64,000 nucleotides of DNA from contig NZ_PDKF01000008.1 in NCBI RefSeq assembly GCF_004118855.1, positions 186,001-250,000 on the forward strand, in the 5' to 3' direction. A program made the translations under genes and the position numbers. Each line of letters opens with the position of its first letter. The stretch's first letter is position 1. Below are positions 18,447 through 29,878 of this stretch, in pieces. This DNA is from Arcobacter sp. CECT 8983. GTDB taxonomy: Bacteria; Campylobacterota; Campylobacteria; Campylobacterales; Arcobacteraceae. The notes under the pieces are model-generated. The model was not told the DNA's origin. It was given only the letters and a program-made list of their open reading frames with translations, and made no database searches.

Positions 18447-19097
18447 TTAATTAAAATATAGACTTTTTAAAATCTTAATTTGTTCATTTTGTAGATAGTT
18501 AAATTTAAATTCACACTCTTTTAAATAGTAAAAAAAGTTCTTTTCATTTATTCCTTTATATTTTCTCAAGTTTTTTTCTAAATATTTCCAAAAAATATTT
18601 AATGGAGTAGAGTAGGAATCCTTTGAAAAGATTCTATGCCATCTTAAGTAATTTTCAAAGGTTTTATTGTCATCTTCATTATTGTAAATAGGCAGCTTAG
18701 GCATAAGTAGGGTATAAATTCTATCATTTGAATAAAAACCAATAATATTTATAGCATTGTATAAAGATTTTTGTTTATCTTTTTTTTGTTTATCAGTAAA
18801 GTAATAGAACTCTTCATAAGAACTATTGTCTTTGATAGAAGACTGATAAACATCTTCAAGATGTGTTGCAATAAGTTGTCTAAAAAGGTTGTATCTATTT
18901 TTGATTGTTCTATAATTTACATTTAAAAGTTTAGCACATCTATTTGCACTAACTTGGTTACAAAAAAACTCAATTACAGTTATATCTGTTTGAAGTTTTT
19001 TTAGGGAAAACTTTCTTTTACAAGAAGAGCATTTCTTGTAATTATCTTGTAAATCATATAAATGTTTGTTGTTGCAATATGGGCATCTTTTTATCAT
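18447..19097 (-). CDS. Transposase-derived (IS1016/IS1595-like) DNA-binding protein, catalytic residues apparently lost
   Basis: The N-terminus holds a zinc ribbon (CPYC at 5-8, CSSC at 23-26) and then a helix-turn-helix-like segment (ANRCAKLLNVNYRTIKNRYN). The C-terminus (NIFWKYLEKNLRKYKGI, YYLKECEFKFN) closely follows the end of IS1016-type transposases of the IS1595 family. The acidic triad of those enzymes appears lost. The ADESYFGG region reads NSSYEEF, the second Asp region is missing, and the Glu before the FW of the third motif is Asn; this alignment is from memory. No terminal inverted repeats flank it. It is divergent from hypB, 126 bases away, so a role as regulator of the hyp operon is plausible but unproven. 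Confidence 0.65.
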   Translation of the reverse strand: MIKRCPYCNNKHLYDLQDNYKKCSSCKRKFSLKKLQTDITVIEFFCNQVSANRCAKLLNVNYRTIKNRYNLFRQLIATHLEDVYQSSIKDNSSYEEFYYFTDKQKKDKQKSLYNAINIIGFYSNDRIYTLLMPKLPIYNNEDDNKTFENYLRWHRIFSKDSYSTPLNIFWKYLEKNLRKYKGINEKNFFYYLKECEFKFNYLQNEQIKILKSLYFN

Positions 19098-22647: not shown

Positions 22648-24291
22648 ATGAAAATCCTACTTCTTATTAGCTCTTTTAATTCATTGTCTCAAAGAGTATA
22701 TACAAAATTAAAAGAGTTAAACTATGAAGTAGCTATTTGCCTATCTTCTCAAAAAAATTTACTAGAAGAGATAAAAGAGTTTAATCCTACACTTATCTTT
22801 TCTCCTTTTTTAAAAGAGTATCTTTCAAATGATATAACTTCAACCTATCCTACATTTATTTTACATCCTGGTGTTATTGGAGATAGAGGTCATCAATCTT
22901 TAGACCATGCAATAAATGATGAAAAAGAGCAATGGGGAGTAGTGATACTAAAAGCAAATGAAGAGTTAGATGCAGGAGATATCTATGCATCTGCTAACTT
23001 TTCTATGAGAAAGGCAAGTAAAGGGTCTATTTATAGAAATGAAGTTTGTGATGCTACTTCAAAAGCTTTAAAAGAGCTTCTTGAAAATTTTACTAATAAA
23101 AACTTTAAAGCAACTGCTCAAATAAAAAATGAAATTCATCCAAGGCTAACTCAAAACAATAGAAAAATAGATTGGCAAAAAGATAGTGTAGATGTGATAA
23201 TCAAAAAAATCAATATGAGTGACTCTTATCCTGGAGTGGAAGAAGAGTTTTTTGGTATTACTTGTTATATGTATGGAGTTTGTAAAGAAGATACTCTAAG
23301 AGGAAAACCTAAAGAGATAATTGCAAAAAGAGATGGAGCTATTTGTTTAGGTGCTATTGATGGAGCTATTTGGGTAAGTCATTTAAAGCAAAAGGATGGT
23401 TTTAAGCTTCCTGCTACTTATGTTTTAAAAGATAAAATCAAGGGTGTAAAAGAGCAAAGAATTCCACTTATTTTAGAAGTAAAAAGAGAAACTTTTCATG
23501 AAATCTTTGTAGAAAGAAAAGATGAAGTGGCATATTTACACTTTGATTTTCACAATGGAGCAATGAGTTCTGAGCAAGCAATAAGACTTAAGTATGCTGT
23601 TGACTATTTAAAAGAAGAGTGTAAAGTTTTAGTTTTAATGGGAGGGGAAGAGTTCTTTTCAAATGGAATACATCTAAATATACTTGAAGATAGTAAAAAG
23701 CAAGGAGAAGATGGCTGGAGCAATATCAATGCTATGAATGATGTTGTTAAGTCAGTTTTATTTGCAGAAGATATTATAACCGTTGCTTCATTTTCTAAAA
23801 ATGCAGGAGCAGGGGGAGTGTTTTTAGGTCTTGCTTGTGATTATGTTGTAGCAAAAGAAGGTGTAGTTTTCAATCCACACTATAAAACAATGGGCTTAAG
23901 TGGAAGTGAATATCACACCTATAGTTTTTATAAAAGAGTTGAGAAAGAAATAGCTTCTAATATTTTAGAAAAATGTATTCCTATAGGTAGTAGAAAAGCA
24001 AAAAGTATTGGAATACTTGATGAGGTCTTTGAAAGTGAAAACTATAATAAAAGTCTTGAAGCATTTTGTGAAAACTTATTAAGTAATGAAAATAGTTTTG
24101 AAGAGTTTATTGATGAAAAAAAAGACTTTTTATATGAGAATGAAACATCAATAGAAAAACTAAAAGAAGAGGAACTTAAAAGAATGTATCCAGAGTTTTG
24201 GGATGAGAAAAGCTCTTTTCATAGTTTAAGAAAAGAGTTTATATATAAAAAAGAACATAAAGATAGTTTAAAAAGATTAAAGGAATTATAA
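22648..24291 (+). CDS. hypX: HypX (HoxX) CO-ligand synthesis protein
   Basis: HypX makes the CO ligand of the Ni-Fe site under aerobic conditions, from N10-formyl-tetrahydrofolate through an acyl-CoA intermediate. The N-terminal half (about 1-260) is a formyltransferase-like domain with HPGVIGDRGHQSLDHAI and ANEELDAGDIY. The C-terminal half (about 275-547) is a crotonase-like domain (GGEEFFSNGIHL, FSKNAGAGGVFLGLACDYVV). Known HypX proteins are around 560-570 residues, so 547 is complete. Its stop and the hypA start overlap (TAATG). It suggests that the hydrogenases mature while O2 is present, as expected for a microaerobe. Confidence 0.92.
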   Translation: MKILLLISSFNSLSQRVYTKLKELNYEVAICLSSQKNLLEEIKEFNPTLIFSPFLKEYLSNDITSTYPTFILHPGVIGDRGHQSLDHAINDEKEQWGVVILKANEELDAGDIYASANFSMRKASKGSIYRNEVCDATSKALKELLENFTNKNFKATAQIKNEIHPRLTQNNRKIDWQKDSVDVIIKKINMSDSYPGVEEEFFGITCYMYGVCKEDTLRGKPKEIIAKRDGAICLGAIDGAIWVSHLKQKDGFKLPATYVLKDKIKGVKEQRIPLILEVKRETFHEIFVERKDEVAYLHFDFHNGAMSSEQAIRLKYAVDYLKEECKVLVLMGGEEFFSNGIHLNILEDSKKQGEDGWSNINAMNDVVKSVLFAEDIITVASFSKNAGAGGVFLGLACDYVVAKEGVVFNPHYKTMGLSGSEYHTYSFYKRVEKEIASNILEKCIPIGSRKAKSIGILDEVFESENYNKSLEAFCENLLSNENSFEEFIDEKKDFLYENETSIEKLKEEELKRMYPEFWDEKSSFHSLRKEFIYKKEHKDSLKRLKEL

Positions 24292-24632
24292 TGCATGAGT
24301 ATTCAATTGTTCAATCACTATTAGAGTCTTGTGAAGAACATGCAAGACAAAATGAATCTGAAAACGTAACAAAAGTTATAGTAAAAATTGGTGTTTTATC
24401 TGGGGTTGAACCTGATTTATTACAAACTGCTTTTGATACATTTAAAGAAAAAACCGTCTGCCATAATGCCCAATTTATAATAAATCGCCAAAAAGTCGTG
24501 ATTGCTTGTTTATCCTGCGATGAAGAATCAACTCTAGAAAAGAATGAATTCGCCTGTCCAAAATGCAACTCAACACAAGTAAAAGTGATAGATGGAGAGG
24601 ATATGTATTTAATGAGTCTAGAAATAGAATAA
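24291..24632 (+). CDS. hypA: Nickel-insertion chaperone HypA
   Basis: HypA binds nickel and partners HypB in loading hydrogenase (and, in some relatives, urease). It begins MHEYSIVQS, with the Ni-binding His2-Glu3 pair. It carries the zinc site CLSC (near 73-76) and CPKC (near 89-92). The 113-residue length is normal. It is last in the hyp operon. Its last ten codons lie in a 26-bp sequence (24600-24625) that is repeated exactly at 28624-28649, on the far side of the next gene. Confidence 0.96.
   Translation: MHEYSIVQSLLESCEEHARQNESENVTKVIVKIGVLSGVEPDLLQTAFDTFKEKTVCHNAQFIINRQKVVIACLSCDEESTLEKNEFACPKCNSTQVKVIDGEDMYLMSLEIE
24600..24625 (+). repeat. 26-bp direct repeat, left copy (inside hypA 3' end)
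   Basis: It runs from GATATGTATTTAATG to TCTAGAAAT and encodes the DMYLMSLE part of the HypA C-terminus. It is identical base for base to 28624-28649. The flanks do not match on either side, so identity starts and stops sharply. The distance between the copies is 4024 bases. The pattern resembles att sites of elements that integrate into the 3' end of a gene and restore it. Confidence 0.85.
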
Positions 24633-24660
24633 CTAATAAGTTATTAAAATAGGGGTTTAT

Positions 24661-24715
24661 TGAAAATAAAAATAACAAATCTCTCTAAAATGTAGGTGTT
24701 ATATTTTTATTTTCA
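24661..24715. terminator. Long AT-rich inverted repeat downstream of hypA
   Basis: TGAAAATAAAAATAACA (24661-24677) pairs with TGTTATATTTTTATTTTCA (24697-24715), apart from two unpaired bases; the loop is 19 nt. It could terminate the hyp operon, or it may mark the edge of the inserted segment. It is the main structure in the 210-base gap between hypA and the next gene. Confidence 0.55.
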
Positions 24716-24756
24716 AGCTTTAATTTAGTCCAAAGTAGTATCTTTTATTATTTAAG

Positions 24757-24762
24757 TATAAT
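24757..24762 (+). promoter_or_regulatory. Possible -10 box for the 1215-residue protein gene
   Basis: TATAAT stands 81 bases upstream of the TTG start, in AAGTATAATATAT. The surroundings are so AT-rich that chance matches are easy, hence the low score. Confidence 0.35.
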
Positions 24763-24842
24763 ATATCATATGAAATTATTTTATAAAAAGTTATATATGG
24801 TAAAATTAAATTATAAAATAATTCATTAGAAAGTTATAATAA

Positions 24843-27800
24843 TTGAATACAAATAACAACAATCTGCAAGAACATTTACATAAGTATAATCCTATTAAAA
24901 CTGCATCAGTTTTTTCATCATTATTATTAAATCCTAAATATCATTATCATCAATATACACTTGAAACTATTATTAAATATTGTTTATCTTTTTGTAAAGG
25001 TGATTTAACGCCAACTGCTAAATTTATTAAAAATATTTATAATGAAATCCATAATAGTATTTCTATGATGGAAGATCCTGTTGAAGATATATTTGTATCA
25101 AAGCTTTTATTCGATGATAAAAGTTATAAAGTGCAATCTGGTCTATGGGAAGGTGGCATACATAGTACACAAATTATATTGAAAATTTTAGAACATTTGC
25201 CTAATGAAGATTTTTTTTTAGAGATGAAAAAACAGATTAAATCTATATTAGAAGTGTCTAATAGTATTATTGAAAAAAATGGGATAGAGTGTAATGAATT
25301 ATTAAATATAAGTCCTGTTGAAACATTAGATGATATAGATTTAGTAAATATCGAAGAATTAATAAATAATGTGAAGATTACTTTTGAAAATTTTAATTTA
25401 CCTTTACTTCAAGAAAATAGTTTTAGTACACTTTTCAATGAAACATTGGGCAATTGTACTTTAGAAAGAAATCCTTTCTATATAGTTCAAAATAATGTAT
25501 ATCTTTTATTCCCTACTGCTATAACGGCCAGTATTAGAAGAATTGCAATTGAATTTTTTAATAGTCATAATAAAAAAGATTTATTTATACAACAATATGC
25601 TCAAACATTATCAGAAGAACTATATAAAACTAGGATATTTGGGAAATATGATGGAATGCCAATAAAATTTTATACTAAGGAAGGTATATCTTCTTTCAAA
25701 TTTTCAGAAAATATACTTCAATTTGATAAAAACCACTTTTTTCATTTTATCTTTGTATTAGATACTTTGGAGAATATTGAAGATAATTGGTTTGAAGGTT
25801 TTATTGAAGATGAAAATTATCAAGTTTCAGATTTCATAGATAGCAGAATAGAAAATACAAAAAAAAATATATTAAATAAAGGCATACATAATAAAGGTAG
25901 TAGTTTTATTGTGCCATGTGGTGTAGGTAGAGGTTTTGTATTAGCATCAAAATTTATAACTGATGATAGTTGGTTTTGTGAATCAATTAGTAATCATGAT
26001 TTAATCACAATTAGTAATGATTTAGATTGTTCTCCTAATCTAATTTGGAGAATAGTTGAGGCACAGTATAAATTAAAAAAAGATGGTACACAAATATTGA
26101 ATTTTAATGGCTTTTTAAATCTTTATGGATATGTTAAAGATAATAATTATTCAATTTTTGTAAATGAGTCTTTTGATGAAGAAGTAAGCACACAACCATT
26201 TACTATGATAACAATTGGAAGTGATTATAATGCTTATATAAGAGAAAAAGTTGCATTAGATACAGATTATAGAGAAGTTATTGATATTGATGGAAAAACT
26301 ATAATTGTGCGAAAAGGGTTTGCAAGTTCATTTTTTTCTACAAATATTAAATACAATCTTTATATACCAGAAAAGCTTGATCAAAAAACTTTTATTACTG
26401 TATATGTTAATTATGGTTATGAAATTTGGTTGAAGCAAACTATAAATACAAAATATGATTTTATATTACAATTTAAATTATTTGATGCTTTAATTACTTG
26501 GTTTTCCAAAATGATGTTTATTTTAAATAAATACAACATTCAAATTGATAAAAATTTAAAAATGTGGAATATTGAATATACTTTAATTCAAAATATATCT
26601 TCTTTAGAAAAAAATATAAATAATATGGATATATTTAACTCATTTGAAAATACATACAATTGTCCTATATTAGATACAAAGTTTAATATTAATATGTTGA
26701 AAGGTTTTATGTTTGAAGAAAATTATTCCGAACAATCAATGATAAATGCTTTTTTAAACTATTTAAAGCTGGATAAGCAAAGTATTGATATTTTATTAAA
26801 AGAAATATTTGTTAATGAAAATGCAAGATTATTCCATTTTTTTAAAGCACATAAATATAGAGAACACTTTGATATTTTAGAAAAAAAGCCAATCTCAATA
26901 CATCAAATTGATGAACAAATAATCAAACTAAATTTAGGCTGGAGTTGTAGAGACAGAGAAGAAGGGAATATAGTTGAAGGTATAGATAATTGTACTAAAT
27001 ATTTAAATAGTTTAATGGAAGTTGTTTGGAAAAATTTACAATCTAAATTAAAAATAATAGAAAGAGAAGATTTAATTAAAAGATTATTAGTTAATTACAT
27101 ATATAGTGATAAAGAAAAAGATATTTGGGGAGTTACTTTTAAGTCAAACTTAGCATTGCATGAAGATAAAGAGAATTTATATAAAGTAGCAATAAATAAA
27201 ATTAGTGAATATAATGCTACTTCTTTATCCTCAAGATTAGTTGTTGAAATGGCTATTTGTGAGTGTTCAGTTAATTGCGGTAAAAGTGTATCTAATTTAG
27301 ATATCCAAGAGTTACTAAGTCTAGCTTCCTTTATGCATTTAATTGGTGGTTTATCAGAAGCAATAAAGTATGAAGCAATCAATCCTAGGATAGTTATTTC
27401 TAGTTTTGGAGATATTTTATTTGAACAATCTTTTAATGAAATGATTATGCATAAATTTGGTTATATCACAAATCAGAAAATTTTAGATTATGAATCAACT
27501 AAATATAGTGAAAAGTTTAAAGAAAAAGAATATACAAAAGATACAAACCATTTATTTGAAGATGGATTTATGGAAGCTTATATAGATGAATTTGATTATA
27601 CAGTTGATGATGCTAGAGTATTTTTAGATTTTTTAGAAGACTATGGACTTAAAATAAATAAATTAGTTTATAGTATAACTTATAATGACCTAGTAGAACA
27701 ATTTGAAGAAGAAAGGAAAGAGGTCTTTATTAAAATATTAGATTCATTAATTATTCATACAAGAAGAGATTGGACTACAATCCCAAAACCTTTTAAAGCA

Positions 27801-28490
27801 GCTGATTGGCAACCTTGGAAATTTAGAAGAAGATATTCCATTATAATGAAGCCAATTATTGAGATTGATTCATTTGAAGGGATATTGATAATTTCACCAG
27901 AATTAGTAAGAACAGCATATTTTAATTTAATTAGGAATATTCATGAAGGACATTTAGAAGCAAATCAATTTCAATCAAAAAAAATGAAAAAATGGATTGG
28001 AAATTTAGTAAAGGAAAAAGGCTTAGCTTTTAATACAAAGGTAAAAGATAAGTTTATTGAATTAGGATTTGAAGCTAAAGAAGAAATTAAGTTATCTGAA
28101 ATATTTAATAAAAAAATGGAAGATTTTGGAGATATTGATGTTTTTGCATGGAACAAAGAAAAAAATATTGTTTATGCAATTGAATGTAAAGACTTAGAAA
28201 TGGCAAAAAATCAAAGTGAAATAGCTAGACAACTTTATGAATTTAAAGGTCAAATAAGACAAATTAATGGTAAGGATAAAAAAGATAGATTATATAAACA
28301 CCATTTACGATATGAAGAATTAAAAAAAGATTTGGATGCAATTGTAAAATTTACAAAGGTTGATAAAGATTTTAAATTAAAAGTATTAGTTATATTTTCA
28401 AATATTGTACCAATGAGTTTTGACACAAATAGGAATTTTATTGAAAATATAGCTTTTCACTCTATTGATGAATTAGATGAAATTATTTAA
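24843..28490 (+). CDS. Large protein with C-terminal PD-(D/E)XK nuclease-like domain, candidate defence gene
   Basis: This is a 1215-residue protein of no family I recognise. The first 1000 residues are mostly alpha-helical in pattern, with no signal, membrane helix, P-loop or helicase motif that I can see. The last 200 residues show a restriction-endonuclease-like fold: GDIDVFAW (Asp1097, Asp1099), a beta-hairpin, then YAIECK (Glu1114-Cys-Lys1116), and a helix with Gln/Arg (SEIARQLYEFKGQ). This D...ExK pattern is typical of Mrr/NERD-type nucleases. The start is TTG with no clear ribosome site, so the start is uncertain. The gene is alone, more AT-rich than its neighbours, and enclosed by 26-bp direct repeats, which suggests acquisition. 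A defence role is inference. Confidence 0.75.
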   Translation: MNTNNNNLQEHLHKYNPIKTASVFSSLLLNPKYHYHQYTLETIIKYCLSFCKGDLTPTAKFIKNIYNEIHNSISMMEDPVEDIFVSKLLFDDKSYKVQSGLWEGGIHSTQIILKILEHLPNEDFFLEMKKQIKSILEVSNSIIEKNGIECNELLNISPVETLDDIDLVNIEELINNVKITFENFNLPLLQENSFSTLFNETLGNCTLERNPFYIVQNNVYLLFPTAITASIRRIAIEFFNSHNKKDLFIQQYAQTLSEELYKTRIFGKYDGMPIKFYTKEGISSFKFSENILQFDKNHFFHFIFVLDTLENIEDNWFEGFIEDENYQVSDFIDSRIENTKKNILNKGIHNKGSSFIVPCGVGRGFVLASKFITDDSWFCESISNHDLITISNDLDCSPNLIWRIVEAQYKLKKDGTQILNFNGFLNLYGYVKDNNYSIFVNESFDEEVSTQPFTMITIGSDYNAYIREKVALDTDYREVIDIDGKTIIVRKGFASSFFSTNIKYNLYIPEKLDQKTFITVYVNYGYEIWLKQTINTKYDFILQFKLFDALITWFSKMMFILNKYNIQIDKNLKMWNIEYTLIQNISSLEKNINNMDIFNSFENTYNCPILDTKFNINMLKGFMFEENYSEQSMINAFLNYLKLDKQSIDILLKEIFVNENARLFHFFKAHKYREHFDILEKKPISIHQIDEQIIKLNLGWSCRDREEGNIVEGIDNCTKYLNSLMEVVWKNLQSKLKIIEREDLIKRLLVNYIYSDKEKDIWGVTFKSNLALHEDKENLYKVAINKISEYNATSLSSRLVVEMAICECSVNCGKSVSNLDIQELLSLASFMHLIGGLSEAIKYEAINPRIVISSFGDILFEQSFNEMIMHKFGYITNQKILDYESTKYSEKFKEKEYTKDTNHLFEDGFMEAYIDEFDYTVDDARVFLDFLEDYGLKINKLVYSITYNDLVEQFEEERKEVFIKILDSLIIHTRRDWTTIPKPFKAADWQPWKFRRRYSIIMKPIIEIDSFEGILIISPELVRTAYFNLIRNIHEGHLEANQFQSKKMKKWIGNLVKEKGLAFNTKVKDKFIELGFEAKEEIKLSEIFNKKMEDFGDIDVFAWNKEKNIVYAIECKDLEMAKNQSEIARQLYEFKGQIRQINGKDKKDRLYKHHLRYEELKKDLDAIVKFTKVDKDFKLKVLVIFSNIVPMSFDTNRNFIENIAFHSIDELDEII

Positions 28491-28580
28491 AAATAAATGA
28501 TAAAGTAGTATATTTCTTCAAATAAAATCGTATAAAACTATTCAAAAAGGTATCTTTGATAAATTACTAAAAATTATACT

Positions 28581-28589
28581 CCCCCCCCC
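28581..28589. repeat. Homopolymeric C9 tract
   Basis: Nine consecutive C residues stand in a surrounding sequence with almost no G or C. G/C homopolymers of 8-11 bases are the usual phase-variable elements of Campylobacterota. This one is intergenic, 91 bases after the nuclease gene stop and 20 bases before a tiny open frame. Confidence 0.8.
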
Positions 28590-28623
28590 TTAACAAGGAA
28601 TTAAAGATATGTTTACATCAGTT

Positions 28624-28649
28624 GATATGTATTTAATGAGTCTAGAAAT
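28624..28649 (+). repeat. 26-bp direct repeat, right copy (hypA 3'-end remnant)
   Basis: It is identical to 24600-24625. In the same frame it reads DMYLMSLE and then continues to a nearby stop (MS, stop at 28654-28656), like an alternative HypA C-terminus. The sequence before it (TTTACATCAGTT) is unrelated to hypA. The right flank therefore probably preserves the original end of hypA, displaced by the insertion. Confidence 0.85.
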
Positions 28650-28762
28650 GAGTTAAGTATTTTAACAATTTTCCTATAATTTATACACTTTATATACACT
28701 TTATCAAAAACTTTTTTGTTTTTTTATGCTAAGGTAATAGATAATTTTTTTAAGGAGAGTGT

Positions 28763-29878
28763 ATGAAAAAAGTAATTAGTTTAGCTCTTGCTACAGCTTT
28801 AACTGCTGGGGTTGCAATGGCAAAGGAGATTAAAGTTGGTGCAGTAATGCCTATGTCAGGTCCAATAGCTGCATATGGGCAAGTAGCAAATTTAGGTGTT
28901 GAATTAGCACATAAATTACAACCTAAATTAAAAAATGGAGATACTATAAAAATAGTATTAATTGATAACAAAGGTGATAAGGTAGAGACTGCAAATGCTA
29001 CTACTAGACTTATTTCTTCTGATAAAGTTGTTGCAATTTTAGGTGCATTAACTTCTACAAATACTGCTCAAACTATTGCAATTGCTGATAAAAAGAAAGT
29101 ACCAGTTATTGCACCTGTTGCTACAAGTGACAAATTAACTGCAAGAAGAGACTTTGCAAATAGAGTTTGTTTTACTGATTCTTTCCAGGGGGAAGTTGTT
29201 GCAAATTATGCAAAAGAGCAAGGTTATAAAACTGCTGTAGTTATTGTTGACCAAGCACAAGTTTACTCTTTAGGTTTATCAAAAGCATTCCAAAAAGCAT
29301 TTAAAGATAATGGTGGAGAATTATTAAAGAAAATCAGAGTTACTTCAGGTGACAAAGATTTTAAAGCAGTAGTATCACAAATCAAAAGTTTAAATCCTGA
29401 TTTTATGTTCTTACCTTTATATCACCCAGAAGCTTCTATGATTGCAAGACAAGCTAAACAATTAGGTTTAGATAAACCAATGTTCTCTGGTGACGGTGTT
29501 GCTAACCAAACATTCATTGATTTAGGTGGGGAGTCTATAGAAGGTTATATGTTTACTGACTTCTTTGATTATACAAACCCTCCATCGCAAACTTCAGCAG
29601 AGTTTATTAAATTCCATGAAAAAGAGACTGGTAAAAAAGAAGTTAATTCATTTACAGCTTTAGGTGCAGATACTTATAATATCTTAATTGATGCAATGAA
29701 TAGATGTGAAGATCCAACTGATTCAATTTGTATTAACAATGAAATTAAAAAAACAACTAATTTTGATGGTGTATCAGGTAAGATTACTATCAATTCTGAA
29801 GGTAACGCTACAAGATCAGCTGTTATTAAAGAAATTAAAAATGGAAAAGCACAGTTTAAAGCTACTGTAAATCCATAA
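28763..29878 (+). CDS. livK: Branched-chain amino acid ABC transporter, periplasmic binding protein
   Basis: This is the periplasmic solute-binding protein of the Liv (HAAT) uptake system. A Sec signal peptide (MKKVISLALATALTAGVAMA) is followed by IKVGAVMPMSGPIAAYGQ, typical of LivJ/LivK and related amide-binding proteins. The 371-residue length fits. Leu/Ile/Val or a related amino acid is the likely ligand, though some members bind urea or amides. GGAGAG (28754-28759) is the ribosome site. It is followed by a terminator before the permease genes, which would give an excess of binding protein over the membrane parts. Confidence 0.93.
   Translation: MKKVISLALATALTAGVAMAKEIKVGAVMPMSGPIAAYGQVANLGVELAHKLQPKLKNGDTIKIVLIDNKGDKVETANATTRLISSDKVVAILGALTSTNTAQTIAIADKKKVPVIAPVATSDKLTARRDFANRVCFTDSFQGEVVANYAKEQGYKTAVVIVDQAQVYSLGLSKAFQKAFKDNGGELLKKIRVTSGDKDFKAVVSQIKSLNPDFMFLPLYHPEASMIARQAKQLGLDKPMFSGDGVANQTFIDLGGESIEGYMFTDFFDYTNPPSQTSAEFIKFHEKETGKKEVNSFTALGADTYNILIDAMNRCEDPTDSICINNEIKKTTNFDGVSGKITINSEGNATRSAVIKEIKNGKAQFKATVNP

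What the first reader, a model, noticed from the sequence alone, without database searches (positions are those of the whole stretch)
24600..28649. 4-kb segment bounded by exact 26-bp direct repeats, one being the 3' end of hypA
The sequence shows that 24600-24625 (inside hypA) and 28624-28649 are identical, with unrelated flanks. Between them lies only one gene, with no link to hydrogen metabolism. Both copies can end a HypA reading frame (DMYLMSLE then IE or MS). That is how elements that integrate into the 3' end of a gene look: the incoming copy restores the gene and the old end is displaced. No integrase or transposase is present in the segment, so the mode of entry would be unusual (in trans, homologous recombination, or a degraded element). 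The hypA 3' end may be an unrecognised insertion hot spot.
Basis: partly seen in the sequence, partly recalled or inferred. Interest (0 to 1): 0.85.

Follow-up and report, generated by a model that had tools for sequence, protein, structure and literature searches.

The report
Integrase-less defence cassette inserted at hypA
A 4-kb DNA cassette carrying one probable anti-phage gene has inserted precisely at the end of a bacterial hydrogenase-assembly gene and rebuilt that gene's end; two related species carry other genes in the same slot, and none of the three cassettes has its own insertion enzyme, so the enzyme was probably borrowed from larger mobile islands with similar end signals.

Summary
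The 26-bp repeats are exact (24600-24625, 28624-28649) and occur nowhere else in the genome. Three close relatives have empty sites with one copy. The right copy is the displaced native hypA tail.

The insertion-site reading is supported and extended. Two other species have different cargo between hypA and a displaced hypA tail: one with two unknown genes, one with TetR+EamA. None of the three inserts encodes a recombinase. All three share about 100 bp from the hypA tail on.

G013's insert carries a TGTAGTAT pair, 22 bp apart, at both ends; G091 has it on the left with one mismatch; the window's sites are degenerate. In 104 family genomes the exact pair occurs six times, all at ends of such elements. 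Four of the six belong to islands in two other species, inserted in the 3' end of an xth-like gene, with a 510-aa tyrosine integrase just inside one end.

Best reading: a non-autonomous (CIME-like) integrative element moved in trans by an integrase of that family. The cargo is a divergent Upx-family gene. Insertion is shown; the trans step is inferred. No hypA-specific integrase was found.

The parts
24291..24632 (+). hypA (113 aa), target gene; last codons and stop (LEIE*) supplied by the element
   Evidence: Pfam HypA E 2e-33; ORF; empty-site relatives end LEMS* or LEMN*
24600..24625 (+). left 26-bp repeat (attL core)
   Evidence: exact repeat
24603..24608 (+). ATGTAT, inferred strand-exchange region: the only run of 6 bp or more that is identical, at one position, between left and right tails in all three occupied sites (ATGTAY); G013 alone also has a 9-bp run at the stop codon
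   Evidence: inference from the tails; position-by-position comparison of G013 and G091
24626..24709 (+). conserved element left end
   Evidence: BLAST from the hypA tail on: 77% identity to G013 over 110 bp, 74% to G091 over 96 bp, 80% between those two (alignment A1); a model built from the three scores 59-93 bits at them and at most 22 bits elsewhere in 104 family genomes
24670..24710 (+). degenerate left arm-site region (contains TGTAGGTGTTATATTTTT)
   Evidence: rank 1 of 127,920 positions with a left-arm matrix that includes the homologous G013/G091 left ends; rank 3 with a left matrix from integrase-bearing loci only; with the pooled matrix the best left-terminus position ranks only 33
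24843..28490 (+). cargo gene, Upx-family protein, 1215 aa (TTG start)
   Evidence: relatives with 85% aa identity at other loci in G030 and G022
28501..28541 (+). degenerate right arm-site pair (AGTAGTAT, 22 bp later AATCGTAT)
   Evidence: rank 1, same rounded score as 3751; rank 5 (right matrix) and 3 (pooled matrix) of 127,920 with matrices from integrase-bearing loci only
28624..28649 (+). right 26-bp repeat (attR core)
28624..28656 (+). displaced native hypA tail (DMYLMSLEMS*)
   Evidence: same last residues as hypA of empty-site relatives G009, G010
28763..29878 (+). livK-like gene (periplasmic binding protein), next resident gene downstream
   Evidence: Pfam Peripla_BP_6 E 7e-50; 92-93% DNA identity to G009/G010 from the right repeat on

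Best explanation
The segment is a 4,024-bp non-autonomous integrative element. As a circle carrying one copy of a hypA-like 3' end, it recombined with the 3' end of hypA. The incoming copy rebuilt the last codons and stop of hypA; the old tail was displaced to the right end. The element carries one anti-phage-family gene (upx) and recombination sites but no recombinase. A tyrosine integrase of the 510-aa kind seen on larger islands (there integrated at an xth-like gene), or a hypA-specific relative of it, bound the TGTAGTAT arm sites and did the integration in trans. Shown: precise insertion, empty sites, three different cargos at one site, common left end, an end motif shared by the G013 and G091 inserts with integrase-bearing islands. 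Inferred: circle intermediate, exchange in ATGTAY, integrase acting in trans, current mobility, and that the window's degenerate motifs are the same sites.
For: Empty sites in G009, G010, G003. Other cargo between hypA and a displaced hypA tail in G013 and G091. In a scan of 398 order genomes 122 have the hypA-end motif; two copies on one contig occur only in G000 and G091 (G013 was not in that sample). Common left end. No tyrosine integrase attributable to a hypA insert downstream of 151 hypA loci (71 plus 80, some genomes in both sets, 17 with under 5 kb of downstream sequence). Exact TGTAGTAT-N14-TGTAGTAT in 104 family genomes: 6 places, all element ends: G013 both ends, G016 and G098 islands both ends. 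The pattern with one degenerate base in 398 order genomes: 3 matches, one at the start of an integrase with 35-39% identity in G313, two inside unrelated ORFs; reversed control 1. A matrix from integrase-bearing loci alone ranks G013's two ends 1 and 2 and G091's left end 1. Occupied species lie apart on a hypA/liv tree.
Against: No integrase with hypA specificity was found, and G000, G013, G091 have only partial, 31-36% matches to the 510-aa integrase. The window's arm sites are weak: ranks 3 and 5 with end-specific matrices, 33 and 3 with the pooled one, scores no better than background. No right-end pair was found in G091 (ranks 72-188). Distances between core and arms differ between hypA inserts and xth islands. 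The GTAGTAT motif was picked by eye from the termini in which it was then counted. One-mismatch pattern hits (17) are no more frequent than the reversed control (33 hits at up to one mismatch). The left-end model was built from the three sites it finds. The nodes placing G091 and G013 are partly weak.
Confidence: 0.6

Rival explanations
1. A decayed element: an ordinary integrase-bearing island once entered at hypA with its own integrase, then lost it by deletion, leaving attL, attR and cargo (a CIME in the strict sense).
For: CIMEs are defined this way (PMC5704250 passages). The window's arm sites are degenerate. Integrase-bearing relatives exist at xth.
Against: Three of three hypA inserts lack an integrase, and no autonomous occupant of hypA was seen among 151 loci. 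G013 keeps exact arm pairs at both ends without an integrase. All three inserts are small: 4,024, 3,170 and 2,145 bp between tails.
Confidence: 0.21
2. Homologous recombination or natural transformation brought in a stretch from a donor whose hypA already carried the cassette; no site-specific event in this lineage.
For: 26 bp of identity and flanking homology would allow it. Upx DNA is 88% and 87% identical in two species of another genus.
Against: It only moves the origin of the structure to a donor. Junctions fall exactly at the repeat in comparison with three relatives, with ordinary 90-93% identity for G009/G010 on both sides. In G030 and G022 the similarity stops at the gene ends and the place is not hypA.
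Confidence: 0.12
3. The insertion is real but the recombinase belongs to another family (for example the Xer-like recombinase or another of the four tyrosine recombinases of the genome), and the TGTAGTAT motif binds an accessory factor.
For: The genome has four PF00589 matches, one of a type found in all eight genomes compared. Core-to-arm distances differ from xth islands.
Against: The arm pair recurs next to 510-aa-type integrases, also at 35-39% identity.
Confidence: 0.07

Closest known systems
CIME (cis-mobilizable element), as in the IME review PMC5704250 and the Dehalococcoides ssrA islands of PMC3146451 (passages of both seen)
   Same: direct repeats kept, no integration or transfer genes; 3' end of a single-copy gene rebuilt by the incoming copy; cargo varies
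   Different: no helper element adjacent; target is a protein gene, hypA; 2-4 kb; no autonomous occupant of the same site found
xth-integrated islands with a 510-aa tyrosine integrase (G016, G098; found here, not looked up in print)
   Same: TGTAGTAT-N14-TGTAGTAT pairs at both ends (as in G013), insertion in the 3' end of a protein gene, displaced native tail at the right
   Different: pairs 20,050 bp apart in G016 (in G098 the two ends lie on two contigs), own integrase, other target; longer displaced tail (about 120 bp)
Upx anti-phage gene (PADLOC PDLC02221, NCBIfam NF042954)
   Same: match over about 1190 of 1215 residues
   Different: scores well below NCBIfam's equivalog cut-off; sits alone in an integrase-less cassette

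Membership tests
Integrative element inserted in a gene 3' end | direct repeats with single-copy empty site in relatives | tested here: met
Integrative element inserted in a gene 3' end | same site occupied by different cargo | tested here: met
   G013 and G091
Integrative element inserted in a gene 3' end | excised circle or attP detectable | not testable with these tools
   no reads held
CIME | no integration or transfer genes | tested here: met
   window: upx is the only long ORF and no PF00589 match lies in the window; G013, G091: no integrase ORF downstream of hypA
CIME | attL and attR retained | tested here: met
   repeats exact; arm sites weak in the window, exact in G013
CIME | derived by decay of an ICE/IME | tested here: inconclusive
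   no autonomous element at hypA found
CIME | mobilised in cis with an adjacent element | tested here: not met
   no tyrosine-integrase match within the 64-kb window; serine recombinases were not searched for in the flanks
Element served by a 510-aa xth-type integrase | arm-site pairs at both ends | tested here: inconclusive
   both ends in G013, left end only in G091, weak in the window
Element served by a 510-aa xth-type integrase | such an integrase present in the host | tested here: not met
   only partial, distant matches in G000, G013, G091
Upx defence protein | family profile match | tested here: met
   PADLOC E 3e-191; below the NCBIfam cut-off
Upx defence protein | anti-phage activity | not testable with these tools
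   needs a plaque assay

The most novel reading that the evidence does not exclude
A class of minimal 'integration cassettes': one or two cargo genes between integrase arm sites and a portable gene tail, without any mobility gene, which borrow tyrosine integrases of larger islands and use their own protein-gene target (hypA), shuttling defence and other genes among Arcobacteraceae.
Probability: 0.32. Interest if true: 0.78.

Novelty: new variant of a known kind. Interest (0 to 1): 0.6.

Why it matters
Defence genes are often seen alone outside islands with no visible route of entry (recalled, not searched). Here is a concrete route: a tiny element with att signals only, using a conserved gene's end as socket, and a candidate integrase family to supply the missing enzyme. 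It gives a sequence signature (gene tail plus TGTAGTAT pair) with which more such cassettes can be sought, and makes movement in trans directly testable.

Tried and rejected
Chance repeat: rejected, the 26-mer is at these two places only in the genome. An exact scan of genome contigs for the 26-mer found nothing (that collection may leave out this genome). Phage attachment site: the hypA-end pattern gave 4 viral contigs; in each it lies in a frame open for only 17 or 55 codons with no hypA, so taken as chance (in L175 it overlaps a long phage ORF in another frame). Upx: no phage record, 6 plasmid records with partial, 20-26% matches, no viral contig. The 510-aa integrase: no plasmid record, no viral contig, 8 phage records with partial C-terminal matches.

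Left-end hairpin: no fold stood out against shuffles (best z -1.7, G013); not claimed. Long hypA-livK gaps in G080, G016 and G083 hold other genes or transposase-like ORFs and no second hypA tail was found there. The 2.1-kb gap in seven genus members is a GGDEF-type gene without a hypA-tail repeat. Tail-motif matches dismissed: G082, 14 kb away; G102, MMILMELQF. A first ungapped 36-mer scan missed the G091 tail because its codons differ; it was found by reading the interval and then by motif.

The integrase profile was built from 30 ORFs, three of them fragments of 30-33 aa because my script took a wrong frame or the gene is broken. It gave four ORFs, two of them the same locus: one in Aliarcobacter vitoriensis 3.4 kb downstream, one in a Helicobacteraceae MAG 2.8 kb downstream, one in a Nitratifractor MAG 206 bp after hypA behind what looks by eye like the end of a tRNA-Leu gene. 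The relative of the 510-aa integrase in G019 has two in-frame stops and no arm pair with up to 3 mismatches nearby; the relative in G262 has none better than 3 mismatches.

Literature: searches for hypA as integration site and for Arcobacter islands with hypA gave nothing on point (listings; PMC5495459 passages); searches on non-autonomous or cis-mobilizable elements (listings) led to the two papers read in passages. No search was made for xth islands in print. Terms such as Xer-like, integron integrase, arm sites are recalled, not from a call.

Full report
OBSERVATION. The window has two exact 26-bp direct repeats at 24600-24625 and 28624-28649. The genome held (24 contigs) has only these two copies, even with three mismatches allowed. 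The left copy is in the end of hypA; the right copy reads into DMYLMSLEMS* and lies in front of a livK-like gene. Between them is one 1215-aa ORF. GC is 22-25% in the five 1-kb windows from 24000 to 28999, and 27-34% in the nine others between 20000 and 33999.

EMPTY SITES. I took hypA in all 16 held genomes of the genus, the window's included. In the three most similar, G009, G010 and G003, local alignments to the window end at 24625 and resume at 28624, sharing a single copy of the repeat. Identity on the two sides is 90-93% for G009 and G010, 81 and 87% for G003. In G009 and G010 hypA ends LEMS*, the ending of the window's right copy. So the right copy is the displaced native tail, and the left copy's last codons (IE*) came with the insert.

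OTHER OCCUPANTS. Among 104 family genomes 83 have a hypA match, the window's own included. I fetched the region downstream of hypA in 71 of the other 82 and looked for a second hypA tail. Two have one: G013 and G091. Two further motif matches, in G082 and G102, were dismissed as chance. G013 carries a 413-aa and a 376-aa ORF without Pfam or PADLOC match; G091 carries a TetR regulator and an EamA transporter. Tail-to-tail distances are 4,024 bp (window), 3,170 bp (G013) and 2,145 bp (G091). G090, G099 and G093, of G091's genus, have livK directly after hypA. A further 80 named loci, 79 of them with at least 500 bp downstream, showed only the G013 record again. A pattern scan of 398 order genomes found the hypA tail in 122; two copies on one contig occurred only in the window genome and G091. 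G013 was not in that sample. G224 and G424 have two copies on different contigs. On a tree of HypA and four Liv proteins (23 genomes) the three occupied species lie apart; several nodes are weak, among them the one joining G091 to G090/G099/G093 (67).

COMMON LEFT END. From the hypA tail on, the window, G013 and G091 share about 100 bp (74-80% identity). A sequence model of the part after the stop scores 59-93 bits at these three places and at most 22 bits elsewhere in 104 genomes; the three are the model's own members. G012 has a shorter resemblance, but its contig ends 569 bp after hypA. The cargos are unrelated.

END MOTIF AND THE ISLANDS. G013 has TGTAGTAT twice, 22 bp apart, at its left end and again at its right end. 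G091 has the pair at the same place on the left with one mismatch. GTAGTAT occurs in 5 of 6 element termini; a slightly longer form was seen 7 times on one strand and never on the other, against a mean of 0.07 in 5000 shuffles, but that motif was chosen from these termini. A better test was a scan of 104 family genomes for the pair. Six exact places were found: G013 twice, G016 twice, G098 twice. Matches with one mismatch (17) were no more frequent than the reversed control (33 at up to one mismatch).

The G016 pairs lie 20,050 bp apart on one strand and bound an island inserted in the 3' end of an xth-like gene, with a displaced tail of that gene at the right end; a 510-aa tyrosine integrase starts about 50 bp inside the left pair. 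The gene was called xth by eye; the G098 copy matches Pfam Exo_endo_phos. G098 shows the same at both ends, on two contigs. In 398 order genomes a pattern with one degenerate base had 3 exact matches (reversed control 1). One is in G313, downstream of a sodium-symporter gene: the pair begins 28 bp before the first ATG of an integrase with 35-39% identity and runs into that ATG. The other two are inside unrelated ORFs.

A matrix made only from integrase-bearing loci (G016, G098, G313) ranks G013's two ends first and second of 35,922 positions with all three versions of the matrix. G091's left end ranks 1, 3 and 1 of 32,322; its right end ranks 72 to 188, that is, it is not found. In the window the left end ranks 3 (left matrix), 19 (right) and 33 (pooled) of 127,920, the right end 11, 5 and 3, with scores like the best background. 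So the window's sites are degenerate, and their identification rests on position as much as on score.

NO INTEGRASE OF ITS OWN. None of the three inserts encodes one. A profile search over the downstream regions of 151 hypA loci (some genomes in both sets; 17 regions under 5 kb) gave four ORFs, none attributable to a hypA insert. The window genome has four tyrosine-recombinase matches; its best match to the 510-aa type is partial, 32%, E 8e-5.

MECHANISM. The simplest account is a circle with one hypA-like tail that recombines with hypA. The only run of six or more bases identical at one position between left and right tails in all three occupied sites is ATGTAY; I infer exchange there. The enzyme is inferred to be a relative of the 510-aa integrase, acting from another element. 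Strict decay from an autonomous element, and import by homologous recombination from an already occupied donor, remain possible.

CARGO. The gene is a divergent member of the Upx anti-phage family. It is rare in the family: 5 of 104 genomes, the window's included, one of them a fragment. In G030 and G022 a copy 85% identical in protein lies elsewhere, and DNA similarity stops at the gene ends. In G012 a more distant upx, apparently split between contigs, has an integrase gene about 4 kb away on one of them.

COMPARISON. It works like a CIME: no mobility genes, attL/attR kept (PMC5704250 passages; PMC3146451 passages, which reports 15 ssrA islands without integration module). It differs in having no adjacent helper, a protein gene as target, very small size, and end signals that (in G013 and G091) are shared with islands using another target. 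I therefore call it a new variant of a known kind.

Noticed in passing
L305+L306 (G016 C1 about 1028.1-1048.2 kb); L307, L308 (G098): Islands inserted in the 3' end of an xth-like gene with a 510-aa tyrosine integrase; the G016 island encodes a ResIII/RE_endonuc protein beside an N6_N4 methylase, that is, a likely type III restriction-modification pair.
   Followed up: partly
L339, L344 (G313): An integrase of 35-39% identity directly downstream of a sodium:solute symporter gene (Pfam SSF) with the same arm pair; a third protein-gene target is likely, but a displaced symporter tail was not sought.
   Followed up: partly
L026:1276-3788: Two-gene cargo at hypA in G013: 413-aa and 376-aa proteins, convergent, no Pfam or PADLOC match; function unknown.
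   Followed up: partly
window 28581-28589: Run of nine C in the intergenic right end of the element, striking in a 25% GC segment; its length may vary between cells.
   Followed up: no
L021, L022, L024, L027, L028, L029, L032: Seven of 15 genus relatives have a gene of about 635 aa between hypA and livK, without hypA-tail repeats; the L021 copy has a GGDEF domain.
   Followed up: partly
window 18447-19097 (-): 216-aa ORF near hypB with cysteine pairs at its start that looks transposase-like by eye; no Pfam match.
   Followed up: partly
L140 (own genome C8:316176, outside the window): A tyrosine recombinase that looks like an integron integrase by eye; no gene-cassette array was sought.
   Followed up: no
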